62,013 bases of DNA from Chthoniobacter flavus (GTDB taxonomy: Bacteria > Verrucomicrobiota > Verrucomicrobiia > Chthoniobacterales > Chthoniobacteraceae): the NCBI GenBank assembly GCA_945860355.1, contig CAMARB010000003.1:1-62013 (forward strand), read 5' to 3'. Shown here one piece after another: positions 33,464-35,263 of this stretch; position 1 is the first letter of the stretch, and the number at the start of each line of letters is the position of its first letter. A program made the position numbers and the translations under genes. The notes under the pieces are model-generated. The model searched no databases. It saw only the letters and a program-made list of their open reading frames with translations, and had not been told where the DNA came from.

Positions 33464-35263
33464 TCAGGGGTCGGCGGTGGCCAGGGTTTCCACCAGCGCG
33501 CTGAGTTGCTCCAGCGCCTGCTGCGCATCGTGGCCTGTCGCGCGAAGCGTAAACGTGGTGCCCCGCTGCAGGTTCGCCGTGAGCACCGATAAAATGCTCT
33601 TGGCCGAATAACTGGAGGCGTCCTTCACGATCTCGATCTGGCATTCAAATGCGCGCGCGCATCGCACAAACGCCGCGGCGGGCCGGGCATGGATGCCCTC
33701 CTGGTTGCGGATGGTGATTTGGCACTCCGAAAATTGGAGCGTCTCGACGGAAAGAAGCGGAGCTGTGCGCCTCCCCATGGGCGCACTTTCGGGGAGCGGT
33801 GGGGATCCCAGCAACCGGAGCTGCGCCTGGAGCCAGTGCCCGGCGGTCCACTGCTCTATCTGCTGGCGGATCCGGTTTAACCAGTGATGGCGTTGCTCCG
33901 TGGGCATTGCAATCGCCTGGGCCAGCGCTTCTGCCGTCCCCTCCACATCCAGCGGACAAACCAGGAGTCCGCAGTTTTCGAGCTCCGCGGAGCCGCCCAC
34001 CGTTTCGGAGATCACCAGCACCCCGGGCCTCTCAGAAGCAACCCCCCATTCCTTGGCTAGGAGACTGATGCCCTCCTGGCTGCTGTTGACGAGCAACACG
34101 TCGCAGATCTCCATGGCCGCAAGGACTTGCGCGTGGTCGTGGCTGTAGAAAACCACAATGGGGTCCGCCCCCGTCCCGTCCCGGAACCGGTCGTTGACCG
34201 CCTCGATTTGGCGCTCAACGGATGCCCGGTAGTCCCGGTAAATGCTCTCGTCCGTGCGCGAAGGAATCACAAAGGCCAGAAATCTCACCCGGCCCCGCCA
34301 CTCGGGGTGCAGCTCTAAAAACCGCCCGAAGGCTTGGAACCCCAGGATGTGGTTTTTCACCGGGTCGAGCCGATCGACCCGCAATACCGTTTGTTCCCAA
34401 ACGTGCCTGCGGAGTGTCTCACGGGCGCGTGCCGTCTCCTCACGTTTGAGAAAACCTCTTATTTTGTCCGGGTCCACGCTGGCCGGCAGCGCTCGCACCG
34501 CCACGGAACGGCCCGAGGGCAGATGCACCTGCCCCGTGCCCGGGTCAACGGCCGCCCGGAGAAACACCCGGCAGCAGGCCAGAAACGAGGCGACATCGGA
34601 CTCGGTCTGGAGCCCGACCACGTCCGCCCCCAGCAGCCCCTCCAGAAGGCTCTGCCGCCACGCGCGGGGAATGAGCCGGAGCCGTTGCGGCTCCGGGAAG
34701 GGCAGATGCACAAAATGCAGGCTGGGGACCCCTGGATAGAGCTCCCGGAGCATCCGGCTCAGCGGATAGAGGTGGTAGTCGTGGATGAGAAAGCCGCGCA
34801 CCGGGAGCTCGGTGGCGGCAACGGCTTGGGCCATCCGCAGGTTGGCCTGGAGATAGGTCTCCCAGGCCCGATGATGCTCCGCTTGGTAGGCCCACTCCCC
34901 GGGGAGCGCGGCGAGGGAATGGTGCATCCTCCAGAGCACCCCGTTGCTGATGGTCCCGTAGTAGGCGGCATACATCGCGGCGGGCAGCGGCACCGGCACG
35001 ACGTTGAGCTCCGGATCGGTCTGGTCTTTGGCTGTGGTGAAGAGATGGTCGCGCTCGGGTTCGCTGCCCGCCGGCTCCGCGACGCAGCAAAACCAGGTGA
35101 CGTTGGGTTGGCGCGCCAGAGGCTCCAGCAGGCTGGCCAGCCCCCCCGTGGACCGCCGCGCCACCCACTGGCCTTGTTCGTAAACAAAATCGTGGGGCCC
35201 GCGATGGGACACGATGACGATGTTGTCGTCCTCGCATCGAGCTCCGGCTGTTTTTTCGGTCAT
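33464..35263 (-). CDS. GT20 (trehalose-6-phosphate synthase-like) glycosyltransferase fused to C-terminal HPr domain
   Basis: N-terminal VIVSHRGPHDFVYEQGQWVARRSTGGLASLLEPL, IHDYHLYPLSRMLRE, VLRVDRLDPVKNH, NSSQEGISLLAKE; C-terminal 88 aa ITIRNQEGIHARPAAAFVRCARAFECQIEIVKDASSYSAKSILSVLTANLQRGTTFTLRATGHDAQQALEQLSALVETL. Confidence 0.9.
   Translation of the reverse strand: MTEKTAGARCEDDNIVIVSHRGPHDFVYEQGQWVARRSTGGLASLLEPLARQPNVTWFCCVAEPAGSEPERDHLFTTAKDQTDPELNVVPVPLPAAMYAAYYGTISNGVLWRMHHSLAALPGEWAYQAEHHRAWETYLQANLRMAQAVAATELPVRGFLIHDYHLYPLSRMLRELYPGVPSLHFVHLPFPEPQRLRLIPRAWRQSLLEGLLGADVVGLQTESDVASFLACCRVFLRAAVDPGTGQVHLPSGRSVAVRALPASVDPDKIRGFLKREETARARETLRRHVWEQTVLRVDRLDPVKNHILGFQAFGRFLELHPEWRGRVRFLAFVIPSRTDESIYRDYRASVERQIEAVNDRFRDGTGADPIVVFYSHDHAQVLAAMEICDVLLVNSSQEGISLLAKEWGVASERPGVLVISETVGGSAELENCGLLVCPLDVEGTAEALAQAIAMPTEQRHHWLNRIRQQIEQWTAGHWLQAQLRLLGSPPLPESAPMGRRTAPLLSVETLQFSECQITIRNQEGIHARPAAAFVRCARAFECQIEIVKDASSYSAKSILSVLTANLQRGTTFTLRATGHDAQQALEQLSALVETLATADP

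What the first reader, a model, noticed from the sequence alone, without database searches (positions are those of the whole stretch)
33464..35263. GT20 glycosyltransferase with a C-terminal HPr phosphocarrier domain
The last 88 residues align by eye along the whole length of bacterial HPr. GIHARPA corresponds to the His-15 phosphorylation loop and SAKSI to the Ser-46 region; the rest matches the end of the HPr fold (RGTTFTLRATGHDAQQALEQL). The first ~510 residues are a trehalose-6-phosphate/glucosylglycerol-phosphate-synthase-like GT20 enzyme. HPr is normally a free protein or part of PTS polyproteins. A covalent fusion to a sugar-nucleotide glycosyltransferase would make a compatible-solute enzyme directly responsive to PTS phospho-state (PEP/carbon status) or to HPr kinase. 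I know of no described system with this architecture, though I could not search.
Basis: partly seen in the sequence, partly recalled or inferred. Interest (0 to 1): 0.88.

Follow-up and report, generated by a model that had tools for sequence, protein, structure and literature searches.

The report
Sugar-transferase fused to HPr phospho-switch
Soil Verrucomicrobiota bacteria related to Chthoniobacter carry a conserved protein, not described in the papers searched, that joins a trehalose-synthase-type sugar transferase to an HPr phosphate-carrier domain with both phosphorylation sites intact, which suggests a sugar-transfer enzyme switched directly by the cell's energy state, often encoded among sulfur-uptake genes.

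Summary
[quoted passage not shown] It is not a frameshift or assembly artefact: 46 further protein clusters (50-98% identity) have the same fusion. In all 47, the HPr His-15, Arg-17, Ser-46 and Ile-47 equivalents are invariant, while the linker diverges freely. The genome encodes EI, HPr kinase, a free HPr and EIIA-Ntr but no detected EIIC, so its PTS looks purely regulatory. The fused HPr groups with a second free HPr type of the order (HPr2), not with the HPrK-linked HPr. The GT20 part fails the OtsA and glucosylglycerol-phosphate-synthase equivalog cut-offs, and no OtsB was found. In the window's own clade the donor-sugar motif DGMN is EGIS or ESIS. Two related fused genes end a sulfate-transport operon; the window and L008 copies sit beside a metal-site-lacking relative of the M14/AstE-like protein typical of those operons. 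Best reading: a GT20 enzyme gated by phosphorylation of its own HPr domain. The architecture is firm; gating, product and sulfur role are inference. No literature on GT20-HPr was found.

The parts
33464..35263 (-). GT20-HPr fusion gene (P0001, 599 aa); alternative start ATG at 35278
33812..35224 (-). GT20 glycosyltransferase domain (residues 14-484)
   Evidence: PF00982, 306 bits; fold match to OtsA structures
33740..33787 (-). flexible linker (residues 493-508)
   Evidence: pLDDT below 50; surrounding linker 485-509 only 26% mean pairwise identity across the family
33488..33724 (-). HPr domain (residues 514-592)
   Evidence: PF00381, 86.5 bits; HPr secondary-structure order in the model
33689..33691 (-). 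His525, equivalent of HPr His-15 (EI phosphorylation site)
   Evidence: invariant in 47 of 47 fused proteins
33596..33598 (-). Ser556, equivalent of HPr Ser-46 (HPr kinase site)
   Evidence: invariant in 47 of 47 fused proteins
34064..34075 (-). donor-sugar motif, EGIS here (residues 397-400) where GT20 enzymes have DGMN
   Evidence: motif role from PMC6879718 and PMC1769515
34133..34141 (-). residues 375-377 (HDH), at the positions that recognise the nucleotide base in S. venezuelae OtsA; N and R in most relatives
   Evidence: alignment; family columns; base-binding residues from PMC5247666
32548..33423 (-). M14/AstE-like protein, probably metal-free (zinc motif HGDE replaced by DSGS), 40 bp downstream and likely in the same operon; start codon uncertain
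36021..37673 (-). Alginate_exp-type outer-membrane porin upstream, same strand; distant homologues lie next to M14 genes in sulfonate-type ABC loci L063 and L077
31436..32497 (-). class III nucleotidyl cyclase, next gene downstream; membership of the same operon uncertain
   Evidence: PF00211, 185 bits

Best explanation
This is a two-domain protein: an N-terminal GT20 (GT-B fold, trehalose-6-phosphate-synthase-like) glycosyltransferase and a C-terminal HPr2-type phospho-acceptor domain on a flexible tether. Shown here: the architecture, its conservation, intact His and Ser phospho-sites, retention of most GT20 active-site residues, EI, HPrK and EIIA-Ntr in the genome, no detected EIIC, and the sulfur-operon setting of relatives. 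Inferred: EI~P phosphorylates His525 when PEP is plentiful, and possibly HPrK phosphorylates Ser556. The phospho-state changes docking of the HPr domain on its own GT20 domain and so switches glycosyl transfer. The product is probably a phosphorylated glycoside (GT20 chemistry) connected with sulfur acquisition rather than bulk trehalose. In the window's clade the donor pocket is remodelled, so the donor sugar or nucleotide has probably changed.
For: Both domains far above cut-offs; 46 other fused clusters; His525, Arg527, Pro528, Ser556, Ile557 invariant in 47 of 47; within the window clade HPr is more conserved than GT20 (97.6 vs 88.3% to P0003, 89.0 vs 81.7% to P0004) while the linker falls to 56 and 32%, so the HPr domain is under strong selection. 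EI, HPrK and free HPr are clustered on contig 33 and EIIA-Ntr is on contig 89; no EIIC detected. GT20 active-site equivalents R9, W40, Y76, W85, D130, H154, R262, K267, R300, E369 are kept in P0001. Fused genes in L007 and L009 end a sulfate ABC operon. Precedent: mycobacterial OtsA is allosterically controlled by 2-phosphoglycerate and 2-oxoglutarate (PMC6879718).
Against: No phosphorylation, activity or interaction data exist. The fused HPr belongs to the HPr2 group, whose phosphorylation by EI or HPrK is unproven. The window clade has D397E, M399I and N400S in a motif called absolutely conserved in OtsA, so its activity may be lost. Only four fused loci could be read with their neighbours, and neither the window nor L008 has sulfate-transport genes nearby. 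The tether does not by itself show that the domains touch.
Confidence: 0.45

Rival explanations
1. Sensor in reverse: the GT20 domain binds a nucleotide sugar or sugar phosphate without much turnover and controls the phospho-state or partner binding of the HPr domain, which is the output, as with non-catalytic yeast and plant TPS proteins that act as regulators.
For: The window clade changes D397E, M399I, N400S and the base-contact positions 375 and 377. TPS-like proteins lacking these residues act as regulatory subunits (PMC1769515). The neighbouring M14 protein in the window and L008 has also lost its metal motif.
Against: 41 of 47 fused proteins keep the motif Asp, and most keep all mapped active-site residues, so for the family as a whole an active enzyme is simpler. 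D to E keeps the carboxylate.
Confidence: 0.22
2. Tethered HPr2 without control of the enzyme: the HPr domain does the job of free HPr2 (for example phosphate transfer to EIIA-Ntr or another target), and the fusion only co-expresses two products of one operon.
For: The fused HPr groups with free HPr2 proteins. Some free HPr2 genes sit in NMT1/SsuA-like ABC operons. No free HPr2 was found in the window genome, only the HPrK-linked HPr and this one. The linker is flexible.
Against: The fusion persists in all 46 relatives down to about 50% identity, with no GT20 of this clade seen beside a separate HPr2; loose coupling should break up more often. G003 keeps a free HPr2 as well as two fusions.
Confidence: 0.2
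3. Phosphoryl donor: His525~P passes its phosphate to the GT20 substrate or product, so the protein is a PEP-dependent kinase plus transferase, in the way DhaM donates phosphate to dihydroxyacetone kinase.
For: DhaM-type proteins carry an HPr domain (weak NCBIfam match NF008478), and HPr~P is an effective phosphate donor in PTS chemistry (established knowledge).
Against: No kinase or EIIA/EIIB-like domain in the protein; direct phosphorylation of a sugar by HPr~P is not known to me.
Confidence: 0.08
4. Artefact: a frameshift or misassembly joining two neighbouring genes.
For: The source is a fragmented metagenome-type genome (276 contigs, 86.5% complete).
Against: One clean frame; the same fusion in 46 independent clusters and in three named MAG loci L007-L009.
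Confidence: 0.01

Closest known systems
OtsA trehalose-6-phosphate synthase (GT20), nearest solved structure S. venezuelae GDP-glucose OtsA 5LQD
   Same: Same fold (TM 0.90 by target length, 32-33% identity) and most donor and acceptor residues.
   Different: Carries a C-terminal HPr; 286 bits against a TIGR02400 cut-off of 565; no OtsB found; donor motif EGIS in the window clade.
Unfused GT20 subfamily of Verrucomicrobiota and Chloroflexota (P0048-P0121, L010-L021)
   Same: 52-57% identity over GT20; clearly the sister enzyme.
   Different: No HPr. Some are fused instead to a YdhS-like FAD/NAD(P) domain; some are followed by a HAD-type phosphatase gene.
Free HPr2 proteins of the order (L078-L097)
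   Same: Closest in sequence to the fused domain: 'SILxVLSANL' region and GLHARPAAEFVR motif.
   Different: Stand-alone proteins of about 90 aa.
Multiphosphoryl transfer proteins (FPr, FruB, DhaM-type)
   Same: HPr as one domain of a longer protein (PMC2405797).
   Different: Those join HPr to EI and/or EIIA domains; here the partner is a glycosyltransferase.

Membership tests
GT20 (PF00982) | Curated profile cut-off and GT-B fold | tested here: met
   306 bits vs 32.5; fold match
OtsA, UDP-forming T6P synthase (TIGR02400) | Equivalog score cut-off 564.85 | tested here: not met
   286.3 bits
OtsA/OtsB trehalose pathway | Trehalose-6-phosphate phosphatase (PF02358) in the genome | tested here: not met
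   No match in the genome, controls ring in 6 of 14; genome 86.5% complete
OtsA | Donor motif Asp-Gly-Met-Asn | tested here: not met
   Glu-Gly-Ile-Ser in the window; Asp kept in 41 of 47 fused proteins
Glucosylglycerol-phosphate synthase (TIGR02398) | Equivalog score cut-off 569 | tested here: not met
   153.3 bits
HPr (PF00381 / TIGR01003) | Curated cut-offs and HPr fold | tested here: met
   86.5 vs 23 and 70.2 vs 47.9 bits; topology in model
HPr | His-15 with Arg-17 phosphorylation site | tested here: met
   Invariant in 47 of 47
HPr regulated by HPr kinase | Ser-46 and HPrK in the genome | tested here: met
   Ser556 invariant; HPrK on contig 33
HPr regulated by HPr kinase | Actual phosphorylation by EI or HPrK | not testable with these tools
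   Needs purified proteins
Multiphosphoryl transfer protein | EI and/or EIIA domain in the same chain | tested here: not met
   Only GT20 and HPr above their cut-offs

The most novel reading that the evidence does not exclude
A new output of the regulatory PTS: phosphorylation of a built-in HPr2 domain gates a GT20 glycosyltransferase that makes a glycoside needed in sulfur assimilation, so that carbon/energy state and sulfur acquisition are tied together in one polypeptide.
Probability: 0.22. Interest if true: 0.85.

Novelty: new variant of a known kind. Interest (0 to 1): 0.6.

Why it matters
PTS phosphocarriers usually control enzymes by transient binding. An enzyme that carries its own HPr domain would be a clean, testable case of direct phospho-control of a glycosyltransferase. 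It would also open up the role of HPr paralogues and a transporter-free PTS in Verrucomicrobiota, and possibly a link between carbon state and sulfur supply.

Tried and rejected
Frameshift or assembly fusion: rejected, since 46 other clusters carry it. Plus-strand gene: rejected. The first genome-contig scan with the single protein found nothing; the alignment scan found 15 loci. A HAD phosphatase like the one following unfused GT20 genes was sought in the window genome and not found; without a positive control this shows little. Paper searches for a GT20-HPr fusion, for HPr with glycosyltransferase, and for PF00381 with PF00982 gave nothing. PTS-Ntr with sulfur gave three papers, judged by title and abstract only as not relevant. 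A single origin of the fusion could not be decided: the HPr tree has too few columns and fused rows are not one clade in it. Whether the two domains touch in the model was not examined; model coordinates and PAE were not at hand.

Full report
Observation. The ORF lies on the minus strand, 35263-33464, and encodes 599 residues. Pfam assigns GT20 to residues 14-484 (306 bits) and PTS-HPr to 514-592 (86.5 bits), both far above the curated cut-offs; NCBIfam agrees for HPr. PDB sequence searches find T6P synthases for the first part and HPr chains for the last. The AlphaFold2 model made from 47 fused sequences has mean pLDDT 86.6, the HPr order of strands and helices at 511-597 and a low-confidence linker at 493-508. 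Foldseek puts the GT part closest to S. venezuelae GDP-glucose OtsA 5LQD.

Not an artefact. A search of 5.8 billion proteins returned 46 other clusters with the same two domains, 50-98% identical, before any unfused relative. The named ones are Chthoniobacteraceae or other Verrucomicrobiota. Three loci in named MAGs (L007 and L008 from RYN_612, L009 from RYN_611) show the same fusion. In 216 genomes of the order, the fusion occurs in the window genome, in G003 (two copies) and in G021, so it is patchy. A search with the HPr part alone against proteins of 330-1048 aa found only GT20-HPr proteins and two Sel1-HPr proteins; that search is limited to relatives sharing short exact words.

Conservation. 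In 47 of 47 fused proteins the equivalents of His-15, Arg-17, Pro-18, Ser-46 and Ile-47 are invariant. Mean pairwise identity is 66% for GT20, 60% for HPr and 26% for the linker; inside the window clade HPr is more conserved than GT20. The HPr domain is therefore under selection as a phospho-acceptor, not a decaying appendage.

GT20 active site. Residues listed for E. coli OtsA in PMC1769515 were mapped by alignment; the mapping is mine. R9, W40, Y76, W85, D130, H154, R262, R300 and E369 are conserved in nearly all members. The window and its three nearest relatives differ from the rest at 397 (D to E), 399 (M to I) and 400 (N to S), the donor-binding DGMN loop that PMC6879718 reports as contacting the donor, and at 375 and 377, which align with the base-binding Asp-339 and Phe-341 of S. 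venezuelae OtsA (alignment; PMC5247666). This points to a changed donor or to reduced activity in this clade. The protein is below the OtsA and GGPS equivalog cut-offs, is the only GT20 found in the genome, and no OtsB was found; the genome is 86.5% complete.

PTS of the genome. HPrK, free HPr and EI are clustered on contig 33, and EIIA-Ntr is on contig 89. No PTS EIIC was detected. The PTS thus looks regulatory. The fused HPr groups with free HPr2 proteins of the order and apart from the HPrK-linked type, though the tree has only 92 columns and only two HPrK-type rows.

Neighbourhood. In L009 the order is Rrf2, porin, sulfate-type binding protein, M14/AstE-like protein, CysT, CysW, CysA, GT20-HPr; L007 is alike with a CysK-like gene. 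In L008 and the window, the gene after GT20-HPr is a relative of that M14 protein whose HGDE metal motif is lost. Elsewhere in the order, 14 of 17 M14 loci examined carry sulfate or sulfonate transport, CysK or Rrf2 genes within about 6 kb, against 4 of 27 loci around free HPr2, canonical HPr and unfused GT20 genes. The 17 were hand-picked from the top hits, and window lengths differ, so the comparison is indicative. One unfused GT20 locus, L021, also has Rrf2 and M14 neighbours. Three of 13 free HPr2 loci sit in NMT1/SsuA-like ABC operons. A porin related to the window's (about 25% identity) sits beside M14 genes in L063 and L077, which also carry NMT1-type ABC genes. The sulfur link is therefore firm for the M14 family, good for two of four fused loci, and indirect for the window.

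Interpretation. Most likely a glycosyltransferase gated by its own HPr domain (0.45). A sensor running the other way (0.22) and a tethered but uncoupled HPr2 (0.20) are real rivals. No literature on the architecture was found in the open-access library searched; known HPr fusions there join HPr to EI or EIIA domains (PMC2405797). Both domains are known and the combination is new, hence 'new variant of a known kind'.

Noticed in passing
window 32548-33423 (-); L007:4279-5190, L009:4219-5100, L008:9988-10782: M14/AstE-like family built into sulfate and sulfonate operons of Chthoniobacterales-type genomes; the window and L008 copies lost the zinc motif. Function unknown.
   Followed up: partly
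L105, L106, L108 (HPr genes near 5600-6100): Free HPr2 proteins encoded inside NMT1/SsuA-like ABC transporter operons, in L106 with Rrf2 and a second HPr.
   Followed up: partly
proteins P0123, P0124: Sel1-repeat proteins fused to an HPr domain (594 aa).
   Followed up: no
proteins P0057, P0059, P0084 and others; L011:6534-9512: Sister GT20 enzymes fused to an N-terminal YdhS-like FAD/NAD(P)-binding domain.
   Followed up: no
L012:2071-2874, L013, L017: HAD-type phosphatase gene directly after unfused GT20 genes, a hint at a phosphorylated glycoside product.
   Followed up: partly
window 31436-32497 (-): Class III nucleotidyl cyclase directly downstream of the GT20-HPr and M14-like pair; not seen at the other fused loci.
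   Followed up: no
window 22742-26630 (+) and 41932-43479 (-): Fucose-isomerase-like, class II aldolase and FGGY kinase genes, and a sulfatase, suggesting use of (sulfated) deoxy sugars.
   Followed up: no
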